Part shown: positions 17,069-57,584 of the stretch, piece by piece
Numbering within the stretch: position 1 is the first letter of the stretch
Layout: every line of letters begins with the position of its first letter
Source: Loxodes magnus
Taxonomy: Eukaryota > Ciliophora > Karyorelictea > Loxodida > Loxodidae
Length of the DNA: 64,000 bases
Assembly: GCA_946699065.1 (NCBI GenBank)
Contig: CAMPDV010000685.1
Coordinates: 168,676-232,675 of the forward strand
Direction: 5' to 3'
Notes under the pieces: generated by a model
The model's database searches: none
Told to the model about the DNA's origin: nothing
The model's input: the letters and a program-made list of their open reading frames with translations, nothing else
Position numbers and translations under genes: made by a program

Positions 17069-18350
17069 AATGTGATGTTAATAAATGAATTTCAATAGCT
17101 TTGATTATTTAAGTAAATAAATCTATCTAATTAAGTTTATAATCTTTAAATAAGAAAGTCTAAAAGAGTATCTTAGGGTTAATAAGAAATTGTATTTAAA
17201 AAATGATTTTAGATAAACCTATTATTATATATGTATTGCATAATTTAGAAATGATTTATGCTATTTAAGTTTATTTTTACTAAATAAATATTTGAATAGA
17301 AAGCTATAAATAATTAAAGAGGTATATTAATATAATTGAGAAGAATATTATAATACATTGATGTTACTAATGATAGCACTATATACTTAATGTAGAAGTA
17401 TTGGTATTTCTATATAAACTAAAGTCTAAATTTTTTGAATTAGTAATTTTATTTATCTGCTTTACATGTTTACTATTTATTTAGTTATTATAAGTTAGAA
17501 ATATATAAAATTTGAGTTTAGTTTCTTTCTAAATTTATGATTATAGACACTCATACTATTTATCTTTTATCCTTTCTATTTGAATAAATGTTGACTTATA
17601 TTTGATATGAATTGAATAACTTTAGCTAATTATTATTTATAGCTATTAGTCTATTAATGATATGACTAGGTTATTATTAGTTTAAGCTTTATAATGATTA
17701 TCTATTTTATTTATCTATTTATTTGCATTTCTTTATTGTTTCTAACTCTTTTAATACTTTTATTACTTTATCTTTCTTCTTATTTGCAGCTTAAACTTGT
17801 AACTATGTTCTTCATTATAAATATCTCATTATATTCTAATATATTAATTTGTAAGACTTTTATTAGCTAAGAAGATGAAATTAGAGTAATAAATATAAAT
17901 AATAGACTAGAAAGCACCTAAAAGGTAGTTATATGAATAATCTAACTATTATTATTTTATTTATATTAGAGAATACTAAACTTATACTAATGTAGCTATA
18001 CTTATATCAGCAGATTAAACTTACTTGCTTATATGAGATTATTAAATTCATTATTTAGTTAAAAGGAAACTCAAAGAGAATTTATCTTAGAGTAATCATT
18101 TAATATCTTAGTATCATTTATTCTAATTAACTTTAATTTATTCTTTAACAAATTATACCATAACTTTAGTAGTAGACATTGTAACTTATAGTTCATACAG
18201 ATACCTATATATCATATGCATTACCTATTATTATATCTTAAACCTTTTTATCTCTATCTATTTTATTACCTTTTATTTCAAATTCAGTATAATATAGATA
18301 TCTATTTACAATTTAATATCAAATCAGTTTTAAGTCATAAGTCTCCATTT
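17069..18350. other. Intergenic region between convergent genes
   Basis: AT-rich with no recognisable gene; the small plus-strand frames near 18216-18407 partly lie antisense to the end of the receptor gene. It would contain the 3' untranslated regions of both neighbours. Confidence 0.45.
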
Positions 18351-21300
18351 TCAACCACTTCTATATACAAAGCAATATCAGCTAAACTAAACTTATTTAA
18401 ACTCTAAAATTAAGAAAACTTACCTTTTCAAGCTTTCGTCATCAATATAGATCCAGTCTCCGTTTCTTTTTACGTAGCAAGAAAAATGTTCTTAATTTTG
18501 CTATTTGTGGATTATAACTGCTAATAAATTATATTGCTTAGCTTAATTTTATCCCCTATATTAAATAACTTACATTTGTATCTATAATTCAGTTTATACT
18601 ATTTCCTATCCTTTAATTCTTTATACATTCTCACTATTTTCCTTCTAATTTTCAAGGAATAAAACTAGGACTTTCGGAGCTATTAGTACTTCGTATTAAA
18701 TTCTCATCTCCTACTAGCATTACTAGCATATTAACTGTGCATCTATATGGTCTTCATTCAAATATTTATTTATGCATTTTTATACATTTAGCTCAGTTAA
18801 GTGTAAGTCAAGCTCCATGAATGCCTTTTATTAGCTTTAATATGAATTACAACCTATGCATTTCTATTTAAGTAGCTGCAAACCCCCAAAGATCTTGTGT
18901 ATGAAACTGTTATTTAATTATTTTCACTCATTTCAATAATTTTATTGTTCGCTTTCTATCTATCATATGAGTTAGGCTCTTCTTTTTGCAGAATTCTTCT
19001 CATAAAGCCTCTGCAATCTTTAATTTGTTCCTCTTAAGTTAATTTATTTTATAATGGAAGTGTTCTATTTATGAGGTGCTTTAGTCTGGAAGCGAGTCAG
19101 TTTACTCAAGTATTTATTTTAAGTACTAAATCAATTTTACTTAGTTTACTTATTAAGAATTAATGTTTTAATCTTAAAATTGTAAAAGACCTTTATTGAA
19201 CTTGGGAATTGAAAATAAGCATTATAATGAAGCATTAATAAAGCTATATTTCTCCTAAAGGTTAGAAAAACCTATTATTTTTAGTTTTTTGTTTAAATTA
19301 TCTCATTCTTGTTCTATTTTTTAGTCTGGTAAAGCTTAATACTCTCCTTAGGATACTTTCTTATAGCACAATAAACATATAAATTATTGCTCACTTGCTT
19401 CACTTTACTTCACTTGAGTTTAGGATTATTATTCTTTAAGGGATTTAATAGAAGATTTATTTAAAACCTTTTGATCTTTTATAAGTGACTATCTTTCACA
19501 AAGTTAGCAATTAAAATATAGTGCTGCTGAACCTTTACTTTATGGTTTATCAGAAGGATAATTTTAGCGATAGATACCTTTTATAGAGTTTATTCTCTAT
19601 TCTTCTATTCTAAACTTTAATATCCCTTCTCATTCTCTAAAGTTTGTAATTGTTATTCTAAAGGAGTAATATTTAAACGGATTTTTTATTCTTATTACTA
19701 AATTTTCTAGTTTTCATTAATTCTTTCTCCTCTTAACAGTTTTATTTTTCTTTTTTCTCGTAATGCTTCATTTTTACCATTTTCTATTTCAACCTTTTCA
19801 AGCTATTCAAGATCTCCTTTTCCAAAGTATCATTTTATTTTTTGTTCCGTATATTCCTTTACTGTCTTTAACAAGTTCCTATATCTGTTGTCCTACTAAT
19901 TTTTTTTATGTAGATATGAAGCTTCTAGCGTGATTAAGATGAAAGAAACTGCAAACACTATTACTGACTTTGCGATGACGTTGCAATCTCTTCATTTTAA
20001 AGCCCAAGCAAAGAATGAGACTCATAAGATTAGTGAGTTTATTATTATTTGCAAAGTATCTGCTAATCTAAAGTTATAGGCGCTCTTCATTTTTCATATA
20101 ACTACTAAGAAAATTACGCTTGCTAAGAGGTAGATTAACCCAAAAAGTTGAGCAACTACTGCTCCTAATGTCTTCTTTAGCACTACAAAAATTAGCATAA
20201 TTAAGGTTTTTAGTAATAGGAATCAAGCTTTTTGATTTATATGCCCTTTTTGGGAATATTCGAAGAGTGGCTTAAAGAAGCATATTGATGATATAAAAGC
20301 CACCAGAATAAAAGAACTCGCAATCACCATTTTTAAGTGCTTTCCTTCTCAGCATTTCTCATTACAGTCCTGCTTCATATAAGCTACCGATTGAAAGCTG
20401 CTAAGATTTTGCTCTATATTTATTATCTGATCACAGAAATAAATATCATATAGCATTCAGACAACGGGGATAAAAAGTAAAAGCTAAAATATTGGGGCTA
20501 ATCAGAAGCAAACTCTTATTCAATAATTTAATTTAGCTTTTCTTTTAGTGCCCATTTTAAAGAAAATAACAGCGGAGAAGATAAACCACAATAGAGCTAG
20601 AATTAAAGATATTCAATAGAATACATAGTAAGTTATATTTCTAATATGAAACATCTCCTCTACATCTAAAAGGAAGAGACTAAAGAATCCTTCCACTTTT
20701 TTATTATATGAACTGAGATCAACTCCAATAGCTAGAAATTAAAATTGCTCAACTAACAGACATAGAACTTTAACACTATCAGTAACGTTGTATTCTATTA
20801 ATGCTTCTTCTATCGTTTCTTAATCGTCATTTTTGTCTTACTAATCATTATTATTCTCTATTTTCCTCGTGTATCTTTCCCTTTAGATTTACTCTACATT
20901 TTATTTATACTAATCTTCAAGTAGCTTGAAATCCGAATTTTTCCAATGATTATATCCGATTAATGATGAAATTAAACCTATGAATATCAAAAATGCTCCA
21001 ATAATAAATCCGAGTTGATAATCTCTGAGTCTTTCTCCATTTTTCATGTACTATACTTATCTAGATTGAAATGGACAATGTATTAATTTAATAGTATCTG
21101 AAGGGATATTGCTTTAATCGTTCAAAGATGCAATTTTTCCATTTCCCCATTGTATAGCTTTATCTATTTTGATTATTTCTGAACAAGTAAGGCAGAGAGA
21201 TCCAATTTAGACATCTATTCATTCGCTGTTATTTTATTAGATATTTACTATATGAAACTATTTAGAAATTCTATCATTACTATTTCTGTCTATTTGCACT

Positions 21301-23335
21301 TAACCTGTAACACCAGCAAAAGAAACATTTCTTATAGCTTACATCATTTAGACTTTATTTAAATAACTTAAACCTTTTAAATTAAGACTATCTATTGCAT
21401 ATGCTATTAGTAATACTGCATAGAAACTAAAGCCAGCCTCTCAATATGGTTCTTCTTTATAAGTTTTAATATAATTTTCCTTTATTTTTAACCAAATTCT
21501 TCTACAAAGCTTTAGGGGTTAATCTAAAGAGCTCCCTTTATAACCTCTTTTGCTTTTCTATACTTAGTTTCGGTTGACCTAATATAATCTTTCTTAACTC
21601 AGTCGTTTGCAATTCAATCGAGTTCTCCAGCCTGGATTCCCAGTTCTCTCAAATAAACGAATATTTCGTAAGGATCTTCCGCTTAGCAAATACAAAAGCA
21701 TATGCGAGGTTTACTTTTGGTAAAGTTGATTACAGCTGATTTTAATTTTCAGTCTTAATTGTTTTTTATATGATTCTTTATACCATTTGTATACTGATAT
21801 ATATTAACTATTTCTATATTTCATTTTTATGATCAATGGTTAAATTACTATTCTAAGTTCTCTGCTCATTCAGAATCATCTTTTATAATTTTTATTTTGT
21901 TTCAAGAAAACCTTCTCAAAGTATAAAATATAGCCTCTACCTTTAAATTTTCTGATTATATTGTTCTGGCAAAATTTGTGTATTCTTATTTATCTGATAA
22001 AGTGGCTATCATAACTGTCGTTCCTATAATAGGGAATTAATCTTCATTACTTTTCAAAACATTTAGCCATTCTTTAGTTAAAGCTCAAGAATATGGTGCC
22101 AAGGAAACTACTCCCAGTTAATCTTTTTAGTTTCAAAATGTAGAATTAAGGTCTTTTTCTTTCCAATCTTCAAAAGCATATCCTTTAGCTTCTAATTATG
22201 GAAGTTAAGTAGAAATAAAGTCTGGTTAATACTTATTGTTAATTATCTCAACAGCTAATTCAATTCCCTAATTAATACTTCTTTTCTGATTCATTGAATC
22301 CAGGTCTGAATAGCATTTTATATCAGCATACGAAATTATTATCTTGTTATCAGTATCATTCTAAATAGTGCTTTTATTACCCATCAGCTAAAACTATGAT
22401 TATTTAGTTTTTTTGATTTCTTTAGTAGATGTAATCTCTCTAATCTTCCCATCTTATATATTATAAACCCAAAAGGTATCTTATATATTATTAGTTCAAG
22501 GATCGCTGCATTAAGAGTTATTTTAAGCGCATCTTTTTAGCTAATATAAGGAAGAGTTAAGATAAGATTAGTTTAACTTTGGACTTATTATTATTAAACC
22601 ATTTAGTCATTTATGCTTCTTTAAGAAAGCTTAGTTTAGCTGTTAATATATACTATTATTCCTTGTTGTTAGAATCAGTTGATTTTATAGCTTATCCTAG
22701 TCTTCGCCAAATAAAAGCAGAGATTGTATGTCACTATTACTTTCTATTATGAAGATTCTTCCAAACATTGTTTTAACTGCTCCATTAATATCGTTCTTGT
22801 TCAAGGTATAATCTTTATGCTTTGAAACTATCATTCTAAGCTTTATTTTTAGATCCTTTTCTGCAATTTTATCCATAAAATTGTTGTTTGTGTTGTCTTA
22901 AATTAAACTTACGTTAGTTAAATCATTTTATAGTTTCAATTGTGGCGTTAACCTGAGACATCAAAGGAGGTGAGACGTTAATAGAAAAATTAAGGAGGAG
23001 TTTGTTGAAATCTTCATAAGACATGAATAAGTGGTAGATTTGAAGTTATTTACAAGCTATTGCTATTTCCATGTTGAAATACTATTGCATCGTGATATCT
23101 ATAACAGCAATAAGGCCTTCGCTTTATTAATTCCAAGCGTCTACTTTCTAACTGATAAATGTCTATTTCTTAAACTTTGCTCATTTCACTTAGAAAACTA
23201 CATCCAGCTATGTGATCTCAATAGACTATCTTAATCTTCTTATGGAGTTTGATAGGAATAGATAATCTTTAGGATCTTCTTAGAAGCAGATATTAAGACC
23301 TGAGCTAAAAAAGCAATTAAAAGTAAAGATTTCAT
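18351..23335 (-). CDS. Receptor-like membrane protein fused to an inactive-looking USP domain (copy 2)
   Basis: Paralogue of the gene at 39784, read on the minus strand from ATG at 23335 (signal peptide MKSLLLIAFLAQVLISAS) to TGA at 18353-18351. Parts in order: two periplasmic-binding-type domains (matching stretches such as AVIDIT, FSINVSPP, LSDKQEYTNFAR), a first membrane span ending GYNHWKN, a loop, several further spans with the conserved YDIYFCD and DCNEKCWEGKH, a Cys-pair zinc region (FNCQLCE, ICLLCYK), then a ubiquitin-specific-protease domain: the Cys box reads EKYSFINASLQCLF with Ser (AGC, 19245-19243) in place of the catalytic Cys, and the His box reads EHFSCYVKRNGDW. A 16-nt intron fits at 22897-22912, and a 19-nt one at 23208-23226. 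Frame changes remain near 23130, 21510 and 19530 that I cannot assign to introns, so the copy may be decaying. A TGA at 18380-18378 could also be the stop. Confidence 0.85.
22897..22912 (-). other. Probable 16-nt intron in the receptor gene
   Basis: GTAAGTTTAATTTAAG (minus strand) interrupts the reading frame exactly where the paralogue at 39784 reads straight through. Removing it restores the frame so that ATIETIKWFN joins FMDK and KLRM, matching the paralogue's spacing and residues. GT-AG introns of 15-16 nt are known in heterotrich ciliates; here the call rests on frame restoration and homology. Confidence 0.65.
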
Positions 23336-24076: not shown

Positions 24077-27000
24077 AATGAGTATAAAATAAATTACTTT
24101 TTAATCGAAGAGAGTATGAGAGAAAAGGTGTTAAAGAGTGATTTTTATTACTCATACGTAATAGGTGACCATAGGCCTGGTATTATATAGGTAAAGATGG
24201 GTAAAGAAGTAAGAAAGCCATAAAAGATAGCAAAAATAAACTACCTACTATTAAAGAAAAAAGAGATATAAGAAAAATTTGAAAGATTTATACAAGAAAA
24301 TCTCTAAGAAGAAGAAATTGATAACCTAAACGGCACATAGACTTATAAATGATGAAAGAAAAAGATATAAGAAGGAGTTTAAATAGTACGTGCAAAATTC
24401 AAAACATAAAACTCTAAGATATATAAATATTCAGAAACAACAAAATAGTGTAATAAAATCTTTAGAAAATACAGCAAACAATTAAAATAAAGGGTAAAGA
24501 ACAGAGAACAAATGAAAATCAATAAATTGAAAGAATACCAAAGAGTAAGATAAGAATACATTTAATCAAGAAAAAAAGATAAAAGAAACTAACTAAACCT
24601 ATTTATGGACAATGTAAATAAAGGAAGTCTAACAGATATGTGGAAGAAACTAAAAAACTTACTTAATAGAAAAAATAATTAATGAGTACCCTCATTAAAA
24701 GAAGATGTTAATATTTTCAGGGATGAATGGTAGAAACTGTATGAAGATGGCGATAATACGTTACCAACTAAATTCTTAAACAAGAGATAAATAGTGGTAA
24801 ACGAATATGAAATTTGAGAAATCATCAACTAATTGGCGAAATGAAAAGAAGCAACCTGATGAAATACAAGCAGGCACAATATTAGCAGGTGGGAAAAAAC
24901 TAACAGAAGTAACATGTAAAATGATAGTTAAGATGATTTAAGAGGGAGTAATACCTTAAGAGATGAAATAATAATACATAATATTAATATACAAAAAAGG
25001 AGGACAGATGAACCCGATGAATTATAGACCAATCTCTTTACTGAATCATGTTTTAAAAATAGTAGATGCATGAATTTTCTAGCAACTATAAGGATATCTG
25101 CATAATGATGAAAGCGAATATTAATATGGCTTTAAAAAAGGAAAATCATGCTCACTATAAATTTTCAACCTAAGAACAGTATAGGAATGATTAATACGGA
25201 ACAAAAAAGATGATTTCGTAATATTTGTTGATATTAAAAAAGCATACGACTCGGTGCAAAGAAAAGATATATGATAAATCCTAAACGATCTAAAAGTACC
25301 GGAATAGATAATTAAACTCCTAGCAAACTTCTACACGAAGAAGAAATTAAACTTAAAATCAATGAATAAATAGCAAAATCATTCGCGACAAATAAAGGAC
25401 TAAAACAGGGAAACATAACGTCGCCAAGACTATTTAACTTAATAATAGCAAGACTTCTCCAAGATTAAAAGCTAGGAATTACGATATACTTTAAAAACTA
25501 AGAGGGATGAACACAAGAAATATATGCAGGATGTTTTGCATATGCAGATGACCTAGCCTTGATAAGTGAATGAGAATAATTAGAGGAAGTAATCAAAAAT
25601 TTAACCTCATGGGAGAAAAATACAAACTGGAAATTGCAGATTAAACAAAATGAATGATATGAAAAGCAGCAGAAAATAGAAACTGAGAAAATATAGGCAA
25701 TACTATTGAGGTGGGAAACTTAAGAATTCAAAGAGTAACGTCCTTTTAGTACTTAGGGCATATAATAGAAGAAACCATCAGCTTTGAAAAACACATGGAG
25801 AACAGACTAGAAGCAGCATGAAAGATGTAAACATGAATACTGGGTAAAATAACAATGAATAAGGGATTAACACCATATAATGCAGGAATAATGATAAAAA
25901 CGTTCGTAAGCTCAGTATTCAGCTATGGGACAGAAGTTATCCCATATTGTGAATAATTTGTAGGAAAATAAGTGATGGAACAATTAGAAATAATATAAAG
26001 AAGATCTTTACGAGCAATCATAGATGCCCCTTTCTAAGTGTTAAATGAGATGCTAGAACACGAGTTACAGTTTATGAAATTTAAACATTACCTATGGCAG
26101 AAAACGCTGAGATTAAGAGGCAGACTAATAGGTAACTAAGGAAAAACAGTAGATGGATTAATGTTCGACCTAAGTAAAGAAGAGAACTTTATTTTTGAAT
26201 AATACTGCACGACAATAAAATTAGAATTAAAAATTGAAGACAAAGATATATTTATAGATGATGGTAATTATAACCAAAAAGGGAAGAAAAACATTAATCG
26301 TGTAATTTGAGAACATAGAGTATACGTAGAAGATAGAGAAAGAATGGAGTAAATGATAACAACTCTACAGTATAGAAAAACATGATTTGATGAATATGTA
26401 GTAGGACCACCTAACTACCTGAGATACAATAAAAATAGAAAAGAAGAAATATGCTACATATTTAGAATAAGAACGAGATGTAATGGGAGCCAGGATTGTT
26501 TAAAAGAAAGACACCTAGTTGTGACAAGCAAATGCCCTTTCTGTAATGATGCAAGAGAAAACGAAAGGCATATCATAGAAAAATGCTCAGAATGCAAAGA
26601 AAGTAGATAAATATGTATTTGAAAGTTAAGAACAATAGGAGTAGAGAGACAAGGAATGGAACTATTCGATATAATATGAGGTACGGCAAAATTCGAAAAA
26701 TTCATTAGAACCTAAGAAGAGTAAAAAAGAGCTAAGACTGACTTGATAATAAAAGATTATATCATAAACATATTAGAAAAAAGAAAAAAAGGATACTTAG
26801 AAAAGAAAATTGAATGAAAAAAAGAAATAGGAAAAGACTATAGAGCAGGAAAAGGATAATTTTATGAGTTTATAAAAGCTTGATTAAGAAGAAAAGAATT
26901 AGAAACGAAAATTAGCAAAGTATGTAAAAAAAAATAATGGACGATTGTAACAAAGAATCACTAAAACGTAGATAGATAGAAGACAGAAGAACAAGAGATA

Positions 27001-27178
27001 TTGAAGAAGAAAATGATGAAGATATGGAACTAATAAGAGAAGAATTTTTATTACCTGAAGGCTTACTTGAAGAAATAGACATGTATTGAAACATTTATTA
27101 AAGAGCTGCGCACCAACGAGTTGCTACGCGCTCTATAATCAAATTTATTTATTTATTATTTATTTATTTAATTATTAA
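24077..27178 (+). mobile_element. 5'-truncated LINE, copy 1 (endonuclease remnant, reverse transcriptase, 3' tail)
   Basis: Similarity to the full copy at 33217-38665 begins abruptly at 24077, inside the endonuclease domain (YKINYFLIEE, then VIGDHRPGI), and runs to the tail. The reverse transcriptase shows NYRPISLL, FVDIKKAYDSVQRKDIWQIL, the GNITSPRLFNL block and the active-site FAYADDLALIS. A C-terminal Cys-His motif follows (CPFCNDARENERHIIEKC). TGA codes Trp and TAA/TAG Gln, so the element uses the host code. Compared with copy 2 it has lost at least two single bases, near 25338 (before the block starting GLKQGN) and near 25611 (SWAEK region), so it cannot encode a whole protein. The 3' end has the hairpin GAGCTGCGCAC...GCTACGCGCTC and an ATTT/TATT tail. 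Truncation at the 5' end is typical of target-primed reverse transcription. No clear target-site duplication found. Confidence 0.9.
27094..27178 (+). repeat. LINE 3' end: stem-loop plus ATTT-type tail
   Basis: GAGC-T-GCGC can pair with GCGC-GCTC across a loop of about 16 nt, followed by ATAATCAAATTT and a TTTATTTATTATTTATTT tail. The same end occurs at 33217-33300, 13590-13655 and, diverged, 11345-11410. Conservation of this end is what the element's reverse transcriptase would be expected to recognise. Confidence 0.75.
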
Positions 27179-33216: not shown

Positions 33217-33329
33217 TTAATAATTAAATAAATAAATAATAAATAAATAAATTTGATTATAGAGCACGTAGCACCTCGTTGGTGCGCAGCTCTTTAATAA
33301 ATGTTTCAATACATGTCTATTTCTTCAAG

Positions 33330-36300
33330 TAAGCCTTCAGGTAATAAAAATTCTTCTCTTATTAGTTCCATATCTTCATCATTTTCTTCTTCAATATCTC
33401 TTGTTCTTCTGTCTTCTATCTATCTACGTTTTATTGATTCTTTGTTACAAGCGTCCATTATCTTTTTTACATACTTTGCTAATTTTCGTTTCTAATTCTT
33501 TTCTTCTTAATCAAGCTTTTATAAACTCATAAAATTATCCTTTTCCTGCTCTATAGTCTTTTCCTATTTCTTTTTTTCATTCAATTTTCTTTTCTAAGTA
33601 TCCTTTTTTTCTTTTTTCTAATATGTTTATGATATAATCTTTTATTATCAAGTCAGTCTTAGCTCTTTTTTACTCTTCTTAGGTTCTAATGAATTTTTCG
33701 AATTTTGCCGTACCTCATATTATATCGAATAGTTCCATTCCTTGTCTCTCTACTCCTATTGTTCTTAACTTTCAAATACATATTTATCTACTTTCTTTGT
33801 ATTCTGAGCATTTTTCTATGAAATGCCTTTCGTTTTCTCTTGCATCATTACAGAAAGGGCATTTGCTTGTCACAACTAGGTGTCTTTCTTTTAAACAATC
33901 CTGGCTCCCATTACATCTCGTTCTTATTCTAAATATGTAGCATATTTCTTCTTTTCTATTTTTATTGTATCTCAGGTAGTTAGGTGGTCCTACTACATAT
34001 TCATCAAATCATGTTTTTCTATACTGTAGAGTTGTTATCATTTACTCCATTCTTTCTCTATCTTCTATGTATACTCTATGTTCTCAAATTACACGATTAA
34101 TGTTTTTCTTCCCTTTTTGATTATTATTACCATCTTCTATAAATATATCTTTGTCTTCAATTTTTTAATTCTAATTTTATTGTCGTGCAGTATTATTCAA
34201 ATATAAAGTTCTCTTCTTTACTTAGGTCGAACATTAATCCATCTACTGTTTTTCCTTAGTTACCTATTACTCTGCCTCTTAATCTCAGCGTTTTCTGCCA
34301 TAGGTAATGTTTAAATTTCATAAACTGTAACTCGTATTCTAGCATCTCATTTTACACTTAGAAAGGGGCATCTATGATTGCTCGTAAAGATCTTCTTTAT
34401 ATTATTTCTAATTGTTCCATCACTTATTTTCCTACAAATTATTCACAATATGGGATAACTTCTGTCCCATAGCTGAATACTGAGCTTACGAACGTTTTTA
34501 TCATTATTCCTGCATTATATGGTGTTAATCCCTTATTCATTGTTATTTTACCCAGTATTCATGTTTACATCTTTTATGCTGCTTCTAGTCTGTTCTCCAT
34601 GTGTTTTTCAAAGCTGATGGTTTCTTCTATTATATGCCCTAAGTACTAAAAGGACGTTACTCTTTGAATTCTTAAGTTTCCCACCTCAATAGTATTGCCT
34701 ATATTTTCTCAGTTTCTATTTTCTGCTGCTTTTCATATCATTCATTTTGTTTTATCTGCAATTTCCAGTTTGTATTTTTCTGCCCATGAGGTTAAATTTT
34801 TGATTACTTCCTCTAATTATTCTCATTCACTTATTAAGGCTAGGTCATCTGCATATGCAAAACATCCTGCATATATTTCTTGTGTTCATCCCTCTTAGTT
34901 TTTAAAGTATATCGTAATTCCTAGCTTTTAATCTTGGAGAAGTCTTGCTATTATTAAGTTAAATAGTCTTGGCGACGTTATGCTTCCCTGTTTTAGTCCT
35001 TTATTTGTCGCGAATGATTTTGCTATTTATTCATTGATTTTAAGTTTAATTTCTTCTTCACAGTAGAAGTTTGCTAGGAGTTTAATTATCTATTCCGGTA
35101 CTTTTAGATCGTTTAGGATTTATCATATATCTTTTCTTTGCACCGAGTCGTATGCTTTTTTAATATCAACAAATATTACGAAATCATCTTTTTTGTTCCG
35201 TATTAATCATTCCTATACTGTTCTTAGGTTGAAATTTATAGTGAGCATGATTTTCCTTTTTTAAAGCCATATTAATATTCGCTTTCATCATTATGCAGAT
35301 ATCCTTATAGTTGCTAGAAAATTCATGCATCTACTATTTTTAAAACATGATTCAGTAAAGAGATTGGTCTATAATTTATCAGGTTCATCTGTCCACCTTT
35401 TTTGTATATTAATATTATGTATTATTATTTCATCTCTTAAGGTATTACTCCCTCTTAAATCATCTTAACTATCATTTTACATGTTACTTCTGTTAGTTTT
35501 TTCCCGCCTGCTAATATTGTACCTACTTGTATTTCATCAGGTCCTGCTGCTTTTCATTTCGCCAATTAGTTGATGATTTCTCAAATTTCATATTCGTTTA
35601 CCACTATTTATCTCTTGTTTAAGAATTTAGTTGGTAGCGTATTATCGCCATCTTCATACAGTTTCTACCATTCATCCCTGAAAATATTAACATCTTCTTT
35701 TAATGAGGGTACTCATTAATTATTTTTTCTATTAAGTAAGCTTTTTAGTTTCTTCACATATCTGTTAGACTTCCTTTATTTACATTGTCCATAAATAGGT
35801 TTAGTTAGTTTCTTTTATCTTTTTTTCTTGATTAAATGTATTCTTATCTTACTCTTTGGTATTCTATTTGATTCTCAATTTATTGATTTTCATTTGTTCT
35901 CTGTTCTTTACCCTTTATTTTAATTGTTTGCTGCATTTTCTAAAGATTTTATTACACTATTTTGTTGTTTCTGAATATTTATATATCTTAGAGTTTTATG
36001 TTTTGAATTTTCCACGTACTATTTAAACTCCTTCTTATATCTTTTTCTTTCATCATTTATAAGTCTATGTGCCGTTTAGGTTATCAATTTCTTCTTCTTA
36101 GAGATTTTCTTGTATAAATCTTTCAAATTTTTCTTATATCTCTTTTTTCTTTAATAGTAGGTAGTTTATTTTTGCTATCTTTTATGGCTTTCTTACTTCT
36201 TTACCCATCTTTACCTATATAATACCAGGCCTATGGTCACCTATTACGTATGAGTAATAAAAATCACTCTTTAACACCTTTTCTCTCATACTCTCTTCGA

Positions 36301-37143
36301 TTAAAAAGTAATCTATTTTATACTCATTGTTTTAGTGAATAAAGGTACCTATTTCAGTTGGGTCTAGGCATATTAAATTATTCTGTTCCATAAACTGTGC
36401 CATTCTCTTTCCTGCTGAGTTTGTTTTCTTTGGCAGTCATTTTTCTATGTGCGCATTTCAGTCTCCTATTATCATTATATTAAGTCTTTTTTCTATTGCT
36501 TATAGTTTAAATTCATTCACTAAATTATAGAAAGGCTCATACTGTTCGTTGTTATTTGCAACAGGAGCGTAGACATTTATTACTGCTAATTATTTCATTA
36601 TTTCTATTGCCATTACTCTCGCTCCTCCAAAGAGCGTCATTTGGTTTACTTCATTCTATATCTCTCTGATCTCCTTACATATGTCGTTTCTAATATAGAA
36701 TGCTACTCCTTTTCCTTTTTTTGAACCCACATTTATTAAATTTTTATATCCTGCTATATTACACATATCTTTTTAGTCTTCAATCTAAATTTCTTATATT
36801 GCCATTATGTGGATACTTTTTCGAGTCATGAATTTGGTTAGTGCCTCTTTTGCACTTCTTACTCCCCTAACATTTGCTGTCCCTATTTTTATGACTTATT
36901 CTTAATCTTTTTTTACACTCATTCCCTCTACTTCCTCTTCACCTTATTCTTCTTTTTATTCATCTTCCTTCTCCACCTTTTCTTCTTCTTATCTATCATT
37001 CTATGCTTCCATATTATTTTCTTTATTAGTTCTTTCCCCTTTTTTGTATTTTTCATCTTATTATCTACCTTTTCCTTCTTCTTATCTATTCTAATCTTCT
37101 TCTTTTTCCTTTTCCTATTAGTTGAAGTCGGATAATTGTTCAT
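33330..37143 (-). CDS. LINE ORF2: APE-type endonuclease and reverse transcriptase
   Basis: A likely start is ATG at 37143 (MNNYPTSTNRKRKKKK), giving a very basic N-terminus. The endonuclease follows at about 36890-36220: KIGTANVRGV, AIQEIQ, NVGSKKGKGVAFYIRND, VINVYAPVANN, IGDWNAHIEKW (the GDFNAH motif with Trp from TGA), KIDYFLIEE and VIGDHRPG (the SDHRPI motif). The reverse transcriptase spans about 35420-34560, with NYRPISLL, FVDIKKAYDSVQ, and the active-site FAYADDLALIS, then the thumb-like YLGHIIEETISFEKHMENRL. A C-terminal CPFCNDARENERHIIEKC occurs at about 33867-33814. The protein nicks target DNA and primes cDNA synthesis there. I have not verified every base of the frame, so intactness is likely but unproven. 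Confidence 0.75.
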
Positions 37144-37499
37144 TTTTGTTTATCGGTTTCTTAGCATAGTACATTCTCATTGAAGTTTGCTTCAATTTAC
37201 TTCTTTCTTCTCCCTTTTATCTTGCATCTTATTCTTTTTCTTCTTGAGTTTGTTCTATTTCTTTTTGCTTTTTTCCTTTATTTACATTTTTCCTGACATA
37301 CTCCATTATACTATTTTGTTTATTTATTATTTCTTTTGTTAGGGTTTAGCGTTTTTACCATCACTTATCCTATCCTTTTCTCTAATTTGCTTTATGGTAT
37401 ATCTTATTATTTAGTTGATTGTTTTCTATTTTATTTAATTATTTGAACATTTCTCTATCCCTCTGTCTTACATATGTCCAATTCCATTTTGATGAAAAA

Positions 37500-39783: not shown

Positions 39784-42700
39784 ATGAAGCTGTTCATTGC
39801 TTGCTTTTTCTTAGCTCGTTTGTCTTTAGCAAAGCATATTCTGGGAATCATTTATTCTGATCAAATCCTTGATCAAGCTTGAAGTTTCAAAGGTGAATTA
39901 ACCAAAAATCTAAATTAAATCTTCTTAGTAGAAGAATTGAATGCTACAAACTAATTTCAAGCTTTTGATTAAATAAGCGACTGAAATAAAAGCGAAGATG
40001 GAGTTATAGGAGTTATAGATATAACGAACTCTCAATTCTTCAACCTGCTTATAGGAAAAATATGTAAGAAATTCTAAATTATTCATATTTTTATTTCTTA
40101 CGAAGAACTAAGTCAAGTTTTACTTCCTTTCTCTATTAATCTTACTCCTTCAAACCAGGACTTAGAAGTAGCCACATATAATGTGCTAAAGCAACTAGGT
40201 TGATAATACTATTGCCTTATTTAGGATGACTTCGATGATAAATGAATGGACAATTTTAATGAAAGTAATATTAAATTACGAATGATAGCTTCAAGTCATA
40301 AGAATGAAGAATAGAACTGAAACGATATAAAAGGAACTATAAAAACTGAAGCTGGAAGAGTTTTCTTAGTTGGGTAAGCTTAAGACTTACATAATTTACT
40401 TTGATTGGATTAAGATATATTAGACAATCAAATAGTAGTAGCAACTAGAAATAGTTACTTACTCTATAGCAAATAATCTATCTCATAGTAAAGCTATTAT
40501 AATGGGTTACTTATAGTAAGTTAAAACTTTACTTAAACCATAAGTCAAACTATTGCTTTTTTCAGAAGTTGTGAAGACAGAAATAAGCAATGCAAGTAAG
40601 GAGATTTAAGTGATTAATTACAAATGAATAAGTTCTGATTATACAATATCTAAAGAAATACCATTAAAGCTGTTCAGTAAATTAATAAGAATTCTACAAT
40701 TTAAAACTCTGATTTAGTGTTTATGGGAAACAGGAGTAAAACTTAAATAGACACTAAGAACAATATTACCATTTCTTATATGAATTCTAAAATTGCTTCA
40801 GATGGAACTGCAACTGAGTGAATTTAAAGTGTTATAGATGGAGCAGAATTATTTTTTAGCCTAACTAACTAAAGAGATAACAAGAAACTAAATTATGCAT
40901 TTCCTTTATCAAATTACTAAATAGAGAAGTTTGGATACTAAATAAATCATAAACTAAATAAAGAATAATTAGAAAAAGAATATAATCAAACTAGAAAAGA
41001 TTGAGGTGTGGCTTCTTTAGGAACTTATTCTTCTAATACAACAATATGATTATTAGATTATATGAAGAGTAAAGGCGATACTTTACCTGTAATTGCTGGA
41101 ACAATAAAATTAATAGAACTTTCTGATAAGCAGAATTATAAATTTTTCGCTAGACCTATTATGTCTAACATCATAAATATCGATGCTTTAAGATTTATTT
41201 TAAAATAGTTCTCATGAAAAAAAATGAAAATCTTAAGAGATGAAACAAGTTGGTCTAATGATACAGCTTATAATTTGATAGATATGGCTAAAGAGAATAG
41301 TATAGAGATAGATAACATAAACACTGAATACAAATATGAGAGTGGAATAACAGATCATATTAAAAAGGGCAGTGATTGAAAATGAAAACCAATGGTATGG
41401 CAATTTTATAAAAGCAGAGCAAATGTTGGAATTTGTGCTTGCTAAAAAGATGATGCATGATAAATATTTAAGTTCCTATATAAATTAGGTGTAGAAGCTG
41501 GAGATTTAAATTGACTAGCGAATGATTGAATAATGTCAAATTTTGTTAGAAATTAAGAATGAACAAAAGCAACTGAAGTAATAAAAGGAGCACTTTAATT
41601 CAATCCAGAAAGTTTTGTAGGAGAATTGGGCTAGATAGTAAAGCTTAAATTAACTAAAGGTTAATAGGAACCTAGCTGAATGGCTGCTTTTAATTTTGAT
41701 TCTGCTCTATTAGTTGCATATGCAATAGAATAACTAAATGATTAAGGCCTCAGTTTTAAGAATAGCACTCAATTAATGGATGCAATAAGACTTGCTTAAT
41801 TCATAGGAGCTACAGGTTTAGTGCAAATAGAAAAGAATTCAAATGATAGAGCTTTTAAAAAATTCGATATAGTGAATGTTTAATGAAATAAAATTTAATG
41901 ATAAGATGTTTAAATAGGAACCTTTTGTTTAACATGCTCAGAAATTATGCATATAAACGAACGCAATTTCATTATCTGGAGTAATGGCCAAAAAACTAAC
42001 TAAATAAACTGAAAAAACATTCCACAAGATACGATTCAAGATATAGAATGTCCATTTAGATCAAGACAAATAGAATATCTATAAAATGGATAAAAACATA
42101 GAAACTAGCATCTTGGCTTTATTTATGGAATAATTATAATTACTATAGCTTCTATTTTCACGGTTATGGGTTATAATCATTGGAAAAACTATTAATTCGA
42201 ACTTCTTTATTATAATAATCTCTAAAATTAAGAAGCTTTAAAAAGGCAGAAAATACATAAAAGAAAGTAAAAACAAAATTAGGAGATAAATATGGCAGCA
42301 TAATAAAAATAGCAAGAATCCGAATCTGATATGGATATAGATGTTGAGTATGGCATGAGTAAAATAAATAAAGACGCAAAGATAGAATATAATGCAACAG
42401 ACGGTATAAAAATACTTTGCTTGCTAATTGAGTAATTCTAACTTTTAGCTATTGGAGTTGATCTTAGTCCTTATCATAAGATGATAGAAGATTTCTTAGA
42501 CATTTTTCTCTTTGATGTAGAAAATATGCTTCATCTAGGAAGGAAGACTTATCTTGCCTTTTATGTAATTTCATTGTTTATTGCCTTACTATGGTTGGTT
42601 TTAGCTCTAAAAATAATATTTTAATTGGAGAATCAATAAAAAAAATTAATAACCAATATAAGTTTCTGACTAGTTCCTATAATGTAACAAATATTCTTTA

Positions 42701-44908
42701 TTCCTATAGTTTGAATAATGTATGACGTTTATTTTTGTGATCATGCCATTTCCTATAACTTAAATAGAAATTTATATTAATCATAAGAATATATGAAGAG
42801 TGACTGTAATCAGAAGTGTTGGGAAGGATATCATATGGCTCTAGTAGTTTTAAGCTCTTTAGTGTTATTGATTTATGTTCCTTTAGTTTGCTACTTAAGA
42901 CCTATTTTTGAATATGCTTAGAAAGTTCATATCTAATAAAAAGCTTCATTCTTATCTATAAAGACGCTTATAATGCTACTCTTCGTAGTACTAAACAAAA
43001 CCTTAGGCACAGTGAATGGCTAGCTATATGGATTAATTTATCTAATAATAACTTGCTCTTTTATACTAATCACTTGGAAAATAAAAAATGCCTATAACTT
43101 TAGATTAGTAGATGCTTTATAAATTATAGTTCTAGGTATCATTTTATGAATCTCAGCTTTTGCTTGAATATTAGGATTCTGAAATTGAAGCTCAAACTTA
43201 TACTACGTTTAACTAGTAATTTTAGTGATAGTTTCACTTTTGATATTAACTTATGGAGTTTATTATATTTAATGAGAAAATAGAAAAAATAGCTAATATT
43301 TTAACTTTCTAAAGACTCTCAACGAAGAAACCGAATAAAAGTTTAAACTCTATTTTGGAAGTAAAAACTAAGAACTGTTCGAAATAGAAAAAAAGAAAAA
43401 TGAAAGATTAAGGAAAAAGAGATTAAGAAGCTGTAATAAAGTTAAATAACACAGATAAGAATAAATCAGCTAATAGAATAATAACATTGACTATAACATT
43501 TCACTTAGAAACTAAGAGAAGTAGCATTCTTCTAAAAATACCAATCATAAAGTAATCCAAGAAGACAGTAATTAGATATACCCATTATAAGGAAAAATAG
43601 AAAAAACAATACCAGCTTAGGAAAATACTAATTTAAAAGATAAAAACTAAATATAGCAAGCAAATCTAGAATCCTTTTTTTGCAAAAAATGTGGATAAAA
43701 CGTTAAGAAAAGAGAACAAATCATAATGGAGTGTAACCATTTTATGTGTCATCCTCTTATTCAATAATATTAACCTTAACTATTACTTGAATGCTAACTT
43801 CGTTAAGCTAATACAAATTAAAAAGTTTGCTAGCAATGCTACTAAAAGTTTATATCCACTACATAACTACATATATTAACCATTTAGTCTAATTTTAAGA
43901 ACCAATAAAATGAGTAAAGAGAAGATAAAAAAGGAATTATAGGATTTTATAACTAATCTAACAAATATTCCTTTGCTAATACTACTTTACAGTGTCTGTT
44001 CTCTATTCCTAACTTCGTGCAAAGTATTTTATAAGTTGAGAATCATATAAAAAATCCTTAATAAATAGAAAACACGAAGCTTATCGAAAGTATGAAACTA
44101 ATTCACTTCGAAATGGAATAATAAAGGGAAGAAGAAGGTTTAAATATAGATGGATTCCATGATGAGATCGATAAAATTATTATAGCGAATTTTGAATAAA
44201 GTGAAGATTGCTACGAGTTCATTAAGAGGTTCCTTTAGTAATTGATGTTTGAAGAAACAGGATAACTTAAATAAATGATAGTAGGAGAAGCATCAGCTTA
44301 GAAATATTGAGATGAATGGAACTAGAAGAATACAAGTTTAGTTCATAAGCTATTTGGAGGTTTATTTTAACTGCATCTTAATTGCAAAAACTGCTAATTT
44401 AGTTCCATAATGTATTAATCTTTTACTGATTTGAAAATATAGCTAACTGAAAGAGATTTAGAAAAGTGTTTGAAGCGTTATCAAGAATCAGAAATTTTAG
44501 ATACAAAACTGACTTGTAGAAACTGCTTATAAAGATTGACTAAGAAGACTAGTATTTTTATAGGTCCTAAAGTACTTTTCATTAGTATTGAAAGATTTAT
44601 AAGGAATCAGTAAAACACAACTAAAATAATAGAAAACGTAAAAGTAAATCCATAGCTTTATTTATAAATGTAAGCTATTATATAAAAAACAAAATGATAT
44701 TAAGAAGTATGAACTGAGAGGAGTTATAATACATAGTGGTTAAGATTTGAAATCAGGACATTATGTTTGCTACGGAAAAAGAGGAGAGAATTGGTATTAT
44801 TTTGATGATGAAAAAGTGAAAAAGTAAGTGTATGATTTCAGAGTCGACATAAAAGAAATTTAGTATTGTCAAGCTTTTATTCTGTTTTATGTTGAGAAAG
44901 AAAGTTGA
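39784..44908 (+). CDS. Receptor-like membrane protein fused to an inactive-looking USP domain (copy 1)
   Basis: One frame runs from ATG 39784 to about 44640 with no break (over 1,600 codons). Signal peptide: MKLFIACFFLARLSLA. Ectodomain: two periplasmic-binding/ANF-receptor-type domains (VLKQLGWQYYCLIQDD near residue 134; WGVASLGTYSSN near 407, LSDKQNYKFFARP, ALRFILKQFSWKK near 469). First membrane span about 777-797 (LGFIYGII...GYNHW), an acidic loop, then about seven spans over 924-1165 with YDVYFCD and DCNQKCWEGYH between, recalling the membrane region of TmcB-like ciliate proteins (tentative). Zinc finger about 1300-1353: C-X2-C-X12-C-X-H-X2-C ... C-X2-C, RING-like. USP domain about 1380 to the end: Cys box NKYSFANTTLQCLF with Ser1396 instead of Cys, EDCYEF, two Cys pairs (NCKNC, TCRNC), His box SGHYVCYGKRGENWYYFDDE. 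The last part needs a short intron or shift between about 44638 and 44704. Probably senses a ligand and binds ubiquitin without cleaving it (inference). Confidence 0.9.
43681..43842 (+). other. RING-like zinc finger segment of the receptor fusion
   Basis: Cys/His spacing CKKC, twelve residues, CNHFMC, a Gln/Leu-rich stretch, then CQQC. It lies between the last membrane span and the USP domain, so on the cytoplasmic side. In copy 2 only the outer Cys pairs remain obvious. In related proteins such fingers bind ubiquitin or E2 enzymes; no function is shown here. Confidence 0.6.
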
Positions 44909-54350: not shown

Positions 54351-55292
54351 TAAATATTTATACAATAAGTTTATTAAAAAGGATTAAGAGTCAAATAAAT
54401 AATAATATATATAAACATTTCTAGCTTTCGAGAAAAATTCTAATCTCTTTGATTTTTGTCATATTTTAGCTCTTAATTTAAAAATAAGAGAATAATTTAT
54501 TGATTAAAGCTGACTATATATAAGATTTTATTTAAGTAGAATTTAGAAATATTTAATAGGCATGAATAATAATAATAGCATAGACTTAATAACTTGATTC
54601 ATATGAATTATTATTAATGATAAATAGGATTTATAAATATATTAAGAATTTTACTTTTTAGAATTAATTCATTCAAATAGAATTAATAGTTAAATAGGTG
54701 TTAAGTTAATTTAGCTATCAAGTGCTAAAATTGTTTAATAAGTTAATAGTTTTCTACTATTATTAAACAATAAATTGGCGCTAAGATTATAATTCCCCTT
54801 TAAATAAATACTTCTTTAGATATTATTAAATTAAAAAAACTTAGGTGCTTAATTATATAAATTAGATTAAGATTGGGAATTAACTTATTTCTCTTAAAAG
54901 TATATTATCACTCTGATTTCTATTTATTTTCCTACTCAAATGCAAATTCGTTTGAAGCTGTAACTAGACTATCTTAATTATTTTAATATAATGCACTCAA
55001 ATTAGAGTCTTTGCTAACAAGATCATTTTTATCTTTTTTTGCTGAATATTACTAGGAATCCAAATTTAACTGAGCGACTTGAATACTTGAAACCTTATGC
55101 TAAGGATTCATTTAAGACGATGAAACATTTAGGTCTTACACTTATATTTAAGAGAAGCCAAAGTTAACATTTTAAAGCTAGTTTTTTTCGATAATTTTCC
55201 TCATTAATGAACTTTATTGTAAGTTGATAGAAGAAAATTATATGCTTTCATAAGCTTATTCTTCCAAAATTTTTTTAATTAGAAATTAAATT
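54351..55292. other. Intergenic region between convergent genes
   Basis: AT-rich, nothing recognised; 3' ends of the Cys-rich protein gene and the kinase gene face each other here. Confidence 0.4.
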
Positions 55293-57584
55293 TCATATGC
55301 TTATGGTCGCTCGCTTGGTTAGTGGCTGAAACATTTTAAAAGCATATTCTTTAAATCTCCCATTAAAAAAATTACAAATTTCAGGATATTTTGAACTTGT
55401 AAGACTCGAAATTATACTGAATGAATTCATACTTTCCCATGGTCTTTTTTCTGCGAAAATTTCATTAATAATACACCCAAGAGCTCCATATATCTACAGC
55501 AGTTCCTATTCCTTTACTTTCGAATTATTCAGGAGGACATATAATTGCAAGTTCCAACCATTTGGCTTGCAAACTGAGCGCTATTCGAATGATTGTCTAT
55601 AAATCTTGCCATTCCTAAATCGCATATTTTTACATTATAATCCTTATCTAGTAAAATATTTTCTGGTTTAAGGTCTCTATGAATTATCTTTTATTAATGT
55701 AAGTAAGAAATTCCTTCACATACTTATAGGATTATCGTTAACTTTTAGCGCGTTGCTAAGGCTTAAGTTTTCTTTTCTGAATATAATAAATCGAAAAGAG
55801 ATTTTTCCATAAGTTCTGTGATAATGCAAAATGGTTGAAACTCTTCAATACACACTCCTATTAAACTTATAAATCTAATATGTTTAATTTATAATATGGC
55901 TCATAGTTCTTTTAATAATAAGTTCAATGACTCTTCATCACTCACGTTCTAATTTAAAATCTTGATTGCAACAGGCTTTTATCTTAAACTTCCTTTATAA
56001 ACTTTCCCAAAAGATCCTTTTCCAATCAAATTTTTAATGGAAATTTTTACTTCTTTGAAGTCTAAAATTCAAATCCCTTTAAGCTGCAATTTTCCCAGTT
56101 TTTTTTGTTTATCTTCTTTAAGATCTGAATCATTTAAGAGAGTTAAAAGCTTCTATTGTTTCTTTTTGCTTCTTCTTTTCTTAATATAAATTATTATTAA
56201 TACTACTAATAAAAGTATTAAGCCAGCACATAAAAACCAGAATATATTATCTCATGATCAGCTGTCTGAGTTTTATGTCTCTAAAAACATAAAATTCTAT
56301 CCTAGAATTTATTGTTAAGAGTTATTTTTTCACAAAAGCTAGAATAAATTTTATTTAATGCTTAAAGCATAAACTCCTGCCTTTTCAGTTCTATTGTCTC
56401 CTAATAAATTAATCAGCTTGTTTTCAACATTGTCACTTAAGTAATAGCGAATTTAATGTTAAGGGTTATCTTCATTTATTCTTCGCTTCATACTATTATA
56501 AATTTATTGTCTTGCAAAGCAGTTAAGTATCATGAATTTATACTTCCATATTGAACTGTTTAACTTTAAGCTTCAGATGTATCCGATTTCTAAGAGTTAA
56601 AGATATAATATTTGATATAGTTATTTTAAGGGCTTTAAGAGGAAATTTGAAATATTACGCGAAGATAATTTGACGATTTTCTTAGAACAGTAGCTTGAGA
56701 AAGTTCCACTAAAGATTACGAATTATGGCTGATTATAATTTCTTTTGTACTTTGCTGCAAGTTTTTATATTCGATTGCGTAATATCCACTGTGAAAATCA
56801 ACTGCATACCCATACAAAATAATAACTGAATTTTCTTCTTAATTCTTAACTATTGGAAACATAGCATATTGCCAAGAATTATAATTCTGCTTCATCTCTG
56901 CGGTTCCAATTAAAGAATTATTACCGAAGCAGTTTGATTATTAGCATTCAAATAACTACATTTGAATATAGAAATAATCTTATTTGTTCATAGCATCATA
57001 CACTAAAATTATCGTAGATCTATTATACCAATCTGCACTAAAACTGGCTTTGTAATTTTTTGAAAGCAATAAATTTTAACAGCCATAAGGACCAGCATTA
57101 TTAAATGCCTATCAGTATATATAAGTGCTATTAGTTTAATCATCAAAGTTATTCCAGAGTAAATAAAAATCCTAGCTGTCAGAAAGTTAAGGCATATACT
57201 TCAAAATAAGAAATAGGTAAACTATTATTAACTTCATAGAAAAGATCTTACTAGTTTAGTTAAGTGTCGTTTTCTATATCGAATATTTAGTACTAAAAAT
57301 ATTCTTAAGAGCAGGATGAAATCACCAACTATAAATTAGGTTAAAGCTGAATCTTCAATTAGAGTAGACTTTACGTTGTTAAGGCATTTTTATTTATCTT
57401 ATATTAGAGTAATATAATCAGATGTGCTAATTACATCGTTCTCGTCGTTTTAGAGATAACTTTCATTCTGCAGTTTGCTCATATAATTTTCAAAAGATTG
57501 TTAAATTTATCCATAAGGAAGAATATATTCACTTGATTTAATTTCCTTAACTATGATGCTTAATAATTGTAATATAATCAGCAT
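55293..57584 (-). CDS. Single-pass receptor protein kinase, several frame changes
   Basis: Minus strand from ATG 57584 ([17 protein letters not shown], a signal peptide) to TGA 55295-55293. The ectodomain has repeated Tyr/Trp/Asn-rich stretches ([57 protein letters not shown]) suggesting a beta-propeller or lectin fold. A membrane span lies at about 56250-56180 ([20 protein letters not shown]) followed by KKRRSKKK. The kinase domain has [17 protein letters not shown], the catalytic loop [24 protein letters not shown] (DLG instead of DFG), PPEQF and [19 protein letters not shown]. All catalytic residues are present. In the C-lobe two single-base insertions break the frame within about 70 bp (before PPEQF and after VDIWS), and there are further frame changes in the ectodomain (near 57300, 57190 and 56495). 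Likely an eroding receptor kinase, or a gene with assembly errors. Confidence 0.8.

What the first reader, a model, noticed from the sequence alone, without database searches (positions are those of the whole stretch)
39784..44908. A predicted membrane receptor fused to a ubiquitin-protease-like domain in one uninterrupted frame
The frame is continuous from signal peptide through two ANF/periplasmic-binding-type ectodomains, about eight membrane spans and a RING-like finger into a USP fold. I know of no described receptor with this order of parts. It would link extracellular ligand sensing directly to ubiquitin recognition at the membrane. The ectodomain and USP identities rest on motifs (LGW...IQDD, FARP, FSWKK; LQCLF, EDCYEF, SGHYVCY); the signalling idea is inference.
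Basis: partly seen in the sequence, partly recalled or inferred. Interest (0 to 1): 0.95.

Follow-up and report, generated by a model that had tools for sequence, protein, structure and literature searches.

The report
Ciliate receptor fused to dead deubiquitinase
A single-celled ciliate carries a gene that appears to join an outside-facing ligand sensor and a multi-pass membrane part to a ubiquitin-protease fold that has lost its usual catalytic cysteine, a combination of parts we did not find described.

Summary
The core of the finding holds. Read with the karyorelict code, 39784-44908 (+) encodes one long protein: signal-like start, two ANF/Venus-flytrap (VFT) domains, a multi-span membrane region, a charged tail, a Cys-pair motif and a full-length USP/UCH domain (1.9e-35, read across a shift). 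"Uninterrupted" proves nothing here, since this code has no dedicated stop. The strong evidence is new: a diverged paralogue (B, 23335-18342, minus strand) in the same window has the same order of parts, and the tail joining receptor to USP is conserved in frame across the only in-frame candidate receptor stop (TGA 43273), where B has AAA.

Corrections. (1) The frame shifts by one base between 44674 and 44707, before the USP His box. (2) Nine spans fit better than eight; only an odd number puts the USP in the cytosol. (3) The RING-like finger is incomplete and below cut-off. (4) The catalytic Cys position is Ser in both copies (TCC in A, AGC in B); His and Asp remain. It looks like a pseudo-deubiquitinase, perhaps a ubiquitin reader. 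(5) B needs 13 frameshift steps, so decay or assembly indels are a real worry.

Function is inferred. No relative was found in the viral, prokaryotic and phage collections searched.

The parts
39784..44908 (+). Gene A: VFT x2 / multi-span / tail / Cys motif / USP
   Evidence: stop TGA 44906-44908
39784..39852 (+). start and signal-peptide-like hydrophobic N-terminus (MKLFIACFFLARLSLA), alignable with B's MKSLLLIAFLAQ
39853..40830 (+). first VFT/ANF domain (outer limits approximate)
   Evidence: ANF_receptor 2.2e-07, 30.7 bits against cut-off 25.4
40831..41940 (+). second VFT/ANF domain (outer limits approximate); best match among solved sequences is mGluR1
   Evidence: ANF_receptor 1e-26; mGluR1 3ks9 1.5e-04
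42112..43263 (+). membrane region: segments 42112-42174, 42403-42459 (weak), 42553-42621, 42658-42723, 42835-42897, 42943-43005, 43024-43083, 43114-43182, 43198-43263
   Evidence: hydrophobicity scan with a recalled scale; 42106-43425 is 49% identical to B
43273..43275 (+). TGA, the only in-frame TGA between the last span and the USP; read as Trp. TAA is the codon before it; B has AAA here
43276..43675 (+). charged tail / linker, no TGA and no ATG in frame 1
43681..43839 (+). Cys-pair zinc-finger-like region (CKKC ... CNHFMC ... CQQC)
   Evidence: coordinates; zf-RING_5 23.8 bits, below the 27.9 cut-off; outer pairs aligned in B, middle not
43942..44905 (+). USP/UCH domain (frame 1, then frame 2 after the shift)
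   Evidence: UCH 2.1e-16 and 2.8e-15 as pieces, 1.9e-35 read across
43969..43971 (+). TCC, Ser at the position of the catalytic Cys
   Evidence: alignment to USP2 and USP36; codon
44674..44707 (+). stretch holding the one-base frame shift; an A6 run lies at 44684-44689
18342..23335 (-). Paralogue B, same order of parts, 13 frameshift steps in the alignment to A
19243..19245 (-). AGC, Ser at the same catalytic position in B

Best explanation
One gene encodes a membrane receptor of a karyorelict ciliate. SHOWN by sequence: a signal-like N-terminus, two VFT domains, a multi-span core, a charged tail, a Cys-pair motif, and a USP domain with Ser at the catalytic Cys position but with the His and Asp positions kept. 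INFERRED: the VFT pair faces outside and binds a small ligand; nine spans put the tail and USP in the cytosol; the USP does not cleave but binds ubiquitin or a ubiquitinated partner, so that ligand state at the surface changes which ubiquitinated proteins (perhaps the receptor itself, in endocytic sorting) are held at the membrane. I am about 0.9 sure of the single fused gene, 0.75 of a cytosolic USP, 0.7 that it is catalytically dead or nearly so, and about 0.35 of the ubiquitin-reading mechanism as a whole.
For: Domains. Fusion: paralogue B is colinear with A (blastp without composition correction or masking, so E-values are generous: 4.9e-86 for A 1-617; reported 0.0 at 36% identity for A 627-1629, which spans membrane region, tail and USP; 6.4e-10 for the His-box part). 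Tail conserved in frame from just after TGA 43273 to about 43564, with the second codon position changing least in the first 50 codons (0.22 against 0.44 and 0.44). Linker coding score 19.1 against a maximum of 1.0 in 203 overlapping intergenic 400-base windows, A/T skew 0.37 against a maximum of 0.26. TGA 43273 has TAA at the codon before and again 21 codons before, whereas stops of Loxodes magnus are preceded by about 20 codons depleted in UGA and UAA (PMC11441545 section 9); the 26 codons before TGA 44906 hold neither. Ser at the catalytic position in both copies. Topology: with nine spans the inside loops hold K+R 12, 2, 3, 2 in A and 8, 6, 3, 3 in B, the outside loops 3, 3, 0, 0 and 3, 4, 0, 2. 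Cys-to-Ser USP53/54 serve as inactive mutants (PMC12037411, passages); catalytic-Cys mutants can sequester ubiquitin (PMC10919355, passages, said of Cys-to-Ala).
Against: No transcript, protein or relative outside this window was available. A has a one-base frame shift and B 13 shift steps, so the USP end may be decaying. Coding statistics are mixed: the linker also has no TGA in frame 2 (0 of 149 codons in frames 1 and 2, 2 in frame 3), frame 1 wins there by only 4.4 nats, 43675-43905 prefers frame 2 by 2.1 nats, and the membrane stretch 42550-43308, which includes TGA 43273, scores as noncoding-like by 10.9 nats in frame 1, as hydrophobic T-rich codons may do. Between A and B the second codon position is not the most conserved in the last USP piece (0.39, 0.41, 0.45). 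Ser is TCC in A and AGC in B, so one ancestral Ser is not proven. The ninth span is weak (score 4.8 in A, 5.6 in B); the same scan also flagged 8 segments in the VFT and USP parts of A at 5.9-8.5 and 2 in B's VFT part at 2.3 and 5.8, and one accepted span scores 4.0 in A. AlphaFold models were too poor to test any fold. Ubiquitin-contact residues were not examined one by one.
Confidence: 0.35

Rival explanations
1. The gene family is decaying: the USP end is no longer functional, and the Ser, A's frame shift and B's many frameshifts are marks of decay.
For: 13 frameshift steps in B and one in A; different Ser codons in A and B, as two separate losses would give.
Against: The UCH profile matches over its full length (1.9e-35); the 66 codons after the shift hold no TGA in frame 2 against 6 of 65 in frame 1 and 3 of 65 in frame 3 and end at a stop with the expected context. 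The nearby WD40 array also shows stray one- and two-base unit-length changes, so assembly error is possible.
Confidence: 0.25
2. Active deubiquitinase using Ser or another Cys, which trims ubiquitin from the receptor or its partners.
For: His and Asp positions and the Cys-pair finger are kept. Some USPs once called inactive proved active: USP52 through non-conserved cysteines, USP53/54 with canonical triads and a longer Cys loop (PMC10919355, PMC12037411, passages). A's Cys loop is one residue longer than USP2's.
Against: Cys-to-Ser USPs are used as inactive mutants.
Confidence: 0.13
3. Two adjacent genes, receptor and USP, each expressed alone.
For: TGA 43273 is a possible stop; ATG 43726 a possible USP start; 12 GT-AG pairs of 16-25 bases lie in 43276-43900, so a hidden intron cannot be excluded.
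Against: In-frame conservation after TGA 43273 to about 43564, AAA at that site in B, TAA just before it, no in-frame ATG from 43276 to 43725, composition unlike the window's intergenic stretches.
Confidence: 0.07
4. A class C GPCR-like receptor that signals by G proteins, with the USP fold as a regulatory tail.
For: VFT2 is closest to mGluR1 among solved sequences.
Against: No 7TM_3 match at E up to 10 (HMMER's filters can drop weak ones), span count fits nine, and PMC9960496 reports no class C GPCR in its 24 ciliates (passages; Loxodes is not named in its text, and it searched with 7TM_3, so it would not have found this gene).
Confidence: 0.15

Closest known systems
Class C GPCRs (mGluR, GABA-B; architecture recalled and in PMC12716839 passages; mGluR1 match)
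   Same: VFT ectodomain N-terminal to a multi-span membrane core
   Different: two VFTs in tandem, no 7TM_3 match and no NCD3G match listed, about nine spans, USP fold at the C-terminus
Single-span VFT receptors with fused effectors (natriuretic peptide receptor guanylyl cyclases, recalled; Venus kinase receptors, PMC3703292, search listing only)
   Same: VFT sensor and intracellular effector in one chain
   Different: multi-span core, and the effector is a USP fold, not a cyclase or kinase
7TM-kinase fusions (GPCR-TKL/K; PMC12716839, passages)
   Same: multi-span receptor with a fused C-terminal enzyme fold
   Different: kinase rather than USP; here the catalytic Cys is replaced
Ubiquitin-specific proteases USP2, USP15, USP36 (best solved matches) and USP39, which lacks catalytic residues (PMC10919355, passages)
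   Same: USP domain over its full length, His and Asp positions, Cys-pair finger
   Different: catalytic Cys is Ser; joined to a receptor; USP39 lacks both Cys and His

Membership tests
USP / UCH (PF00443) | full-length domain match | tested here: met
   1.9e-35, profile 2-254 of 254, read across the shift; pieces 2.1e-16 and 2.8e-15
USP / UCH (PF00443) | catalytic Cys | tested here: not met
   Ser in A and in B
USP / UCH (PF00443) | catalytic His and Asp/Asn | tested here: met
   SGHYVCY and WYYFDD aligned to USP36 AGHYYCY and WYQMND
USP / UCH (PF00443) | Cys-pair zinc finger of the fingers subdomain | tested here: met
   CKNC and CRNC aligned to USP2 CTDC and CCRC
Active deubiquitinase | cleavage of ubiquitin | not testable with these tools
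   needs protein
ANF/VFT receptor ectodomain (PF01094) | domain match above cut-off | tested here: met
   30.7 and 94.3 bits against 25.4
Class C GPCR | 7TM_3 core (PF00003) | tested here: not met
   no match listed at E up to 10; HMMER filters may drop weak ones
Class C GPCR | seven spans | tested here: inconclusive
   eight stronger segments plus one weaker; scale recalled
Class C GPCR | amino-acid-binding residues of mGluR1 (numbering recalled) | tested here: not met
   read off the 1ewk alignment: 1 of 4 kept (Ser165); Thr188 is Lys, Asp208 is Asn, Tyr236 is Trp; other contacts not examined
RING finger | eight metal ligands in RING spacing (consensus recalled) | tested here: not met
   one of eight missing in A by eye; 23.8 bits, below the 27.9 cut-off; middle ligands not seen in B, which may reflect B's decay
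Karyorelict genetic code (table 27) | TGA read as Trp, TAA/TAG as Gln | tested here: met
   14 of 27 aligned TGA of A face Trp in B and 15 of 28 of B face Trp in A, background 2.3%; TAA/TAG of A face Gln most often, 49 of the 102 in the eight commonest classes printed

The most novel reading that the evidence does not exclude
A class of ciliate surface receptors whose built-in output is a catalytically dead deubiquitinase: ligand binding outside gates capture of ubiquitin or ubiquitinated proteins inside, a direct sensor-to-ubiquitin link in one chain.
Probability: 0.3. Interest if true: 0.88.

Novelty: new variant of a known kind. Interest (0 to 1): 0.72.

Why it matters
Receptors with fused enzymes are known, but none of the papers listed is, by title and abstract, about one with a deubiquitinase fold (open-access library; one search listed 12 of 63 papers, the others listed every paper found). 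Two copies with the same order make the fusion hard to dismiss, and the lost catalytic Cys turns a vague idea into a sharp test: does the domain bind ubiquitin, and does ligand change it? It would also add VFT sensing by a multi-span receptor to ciliates, where a survey of 24 species (PMC9960496, passages) found no class C GPCR.

Tried and rejected
Openness of the frame as evidence: rejected, since code 27 has no dedicated stop. Intron to explain A's shift: of the GT-AG candidates of 15-60 bases listed, those of 31 and 37 bases near 44640 restore the frame at the cost of about ten residues that align with B; published Loxodes magnus introns are 93% of 25 bases or fewer (PMC11441545) and B reads through in frame there, so a one-base indel is preferred but not proven. 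A 17-base gap in B (21459-21475) first looked like a modal-length intron (my note says so); the frameshift-tolerant alignment puts a small shift at 21463 instead, and GT-AG candidates of 26, 35, 38 and 41 bases also restore the frame; unresolved. That alignment also placed one 33-base intron in B at 18569, but B is open there, so I do not rely on it. In one search I read B in the wrong frame (start 21475); corrected. Relatives: viral contigs with the whole protein (no pattern match) and with alignment A1 (120 pattern matches, none a relative); genome contigs with A2 (45 pattern matches, none a relative); degenerate DNA patterns (0 matches); phages by protein (no match). None of these is a ciliate collection, and back-translation may not allow for code 27, so the misses say little. 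Own genome not held. NCBIfam gave nothing above cut-off. Structure prediction of the membrane core (2 sequences) and USP (1 sequence) was poor, so I ran no fold search. The PDB sequence search of the membrane core gave only E 0.2 or worse. In one search I dropped A's matches to itself and rows of 32 bits or less before printing.
Full report
WHAT WAS CHECKED. The window reads as karyorelict DNA; its species was not identified. Because no codon is a dedicated stop in this code, an open frame is not evidence. I therefore looked for evidence that does not depend on openness.

DOMAINS. Pfam gives ANF_receptor on both halves of the ectodomain (30.7 and 94.3 bits, cut-off 25.4) and UCH on the C-terminus (2.1e-16 for the frame-1 part, 2.8e-15 for the His-box part; 1.9e-35 over the whole profile when read across a one-base shift). 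The nearest solved sequences are mGluR1 for the second VFT (1.5e-04) and USP36, USP15 and USP2 for the USP (1.3e-16 and weaker). The membrane core matched nothing meaningful.

A SECOND COPY. A Pfam scan of 20 of the 33 other coding segments found ANF_receptor and UCH again on the minus strand. Gene B (23335-18342) is colinear with A: blastp, run without masking or composition correction, gives E 4.9e-86 for A residues 1-617, a reported E of 0.0 at 36% identity for 627-1629, and 6.4e-10 for the His-box part. The membrane region is 49% identical. In a frameshift-tolerant alignment B needs 13 shift steps, a few of them neighbouring pairs that may offset each other (counted), so it is a decayed copy or carries assembly indels. 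It needs none from 21458 to about 19750, which covers the end of the ectodomain, the membrane segments and the start of the tail.

ONE GENE OR TWO. The only in-frame TGA between the last span and the USP is 43273. B has AAA there. The tail after it aligns between A and B in the expected frames with score 139, against 67 for the best other frame pair and 92 for the best of 2000 residue shuffles, out to about 43564. In the first 50 codons after the TGA the second codon position changes least (0.22 against 0.44 and 0.44). The linker's coding score (19.1) and A/T skew (0.37) lie outside 203 overlapping intergenic windows (maxima 1.0 and 0.26); those windows were defined by the same kind of model, so this is not independent. 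Against: frame 1 is preferred in the linker by only 4.4 nats; frame 2 there has no TGA either; 43675-43905 prefers frame 2 by 2.1 nats; and 42550-43308 scores as noncoding-like by 10.9 nats, as T-rich hydrophobic codons may do. No in-frame ATG lies between 43276 and 43725. Stops of Loxodes magnus are preceded by about 20 codons depleted in UGA and UAA (PMC11441545 section 9); TGA 43273 has TAA one codon before, while the 26 codons before TGA 44906 hold neither. I take one gene as about 0.9 likely.

THE FRAME SHIFT. SGHYVCY lies in frame 2, open from 44708. B is in frame at the matching place. A one-base indel, perhaps in the A6 run 44684-44689, by assembly error or real mutation, is the simplest reading; GT-AG introns of 31 or 37 bases that would drop about ten conserved residues are not excluded. 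The WD40 array at 1-10860 also shows units of 122, 124 and 125 bases among 123-base units.

THE USP IS CATALYTICALLY ODD. A reads NKYSFANTTLQCLF where USP2 reads NTCFMNSILQCL; the best match in that call, 5xve, itself prints Ser at that place. B reads EKYSFINASLQCLF. The codons are TCC in A and AGC in B, which differ at two bases; both are one step from TGC (Cys), so Ser may have arisen twice. His and Asp positions are kept.

TOPOLOGY. Eight segments are stronger and a ninth (42403-42459) is weaker (scale recalled); the scan also flagged segments inside the VFT and USP parts that I set aside as belonging to soluble domains. With a signal peptide, eight spans would leave the USP outside; nine put it inside and place the positive loops inside in both copies. 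This is inference.

ZINC MOTIF. zf-RING_5 scores 23.8 bits on an 89-residue piece, below 27.9. One of the eight RING ligands is missing by eye, and only the outer Cys pairs are seen in B.

FUNCTION. Best reading: a ligand-sensing membrane receptor with a cytosolic pseudo-deubiquitinase that holds ubiquitin or ubiquitinated partners. Only the anatomy is shown. Of four mGluR1 amino-acid contacts read off (numbering recalled) one is kept, so the ligand is open.

LITERATURE. PMC11441545: section 9 whole, other passages. PMC10919355, PMC9960496, PMC12716839 and PMC12037411: passages only. PMC9960496 reports no class C GPCR in the 24 ciliates it surveyed. Searches for receptor-deubiquitinase fusions and membrane deubiquitinases listed nothing of this kind by title and abstract; the library is open access, and one search listed 12 of 63 papers.

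Noticed in passing
1-10860: Tandem array of a 123-base unit, 88 copies at 95% match, encoding WD40 repeats on the minus strand (WD40 1.2e-64 on 1080-2861), with stray units of 122, 124 and 125 bases.
   Followed up: partly
33262-37471 (-): LINE-like element: RVT_1 3.6e-24 and Exo_endo_phos_2 8.5e-12, with a weak zf-RVT; another weak zf-RVT at 25417-27135 (+). Both lie between the two receptor-USP copies.
   Followed up: no
54884-57559 (-): Protein kinase domain (1.3e-40) late in an 892-residue frame whose earlier part is unassigned; possibly another receptor-like protein.
   Followed up: no
43969-43971 and 19243-19245: Ser at the USP catalytic position is TCC in one copy and AGC in the other, so the same substitution may have happened twice.
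   Followed up: partly
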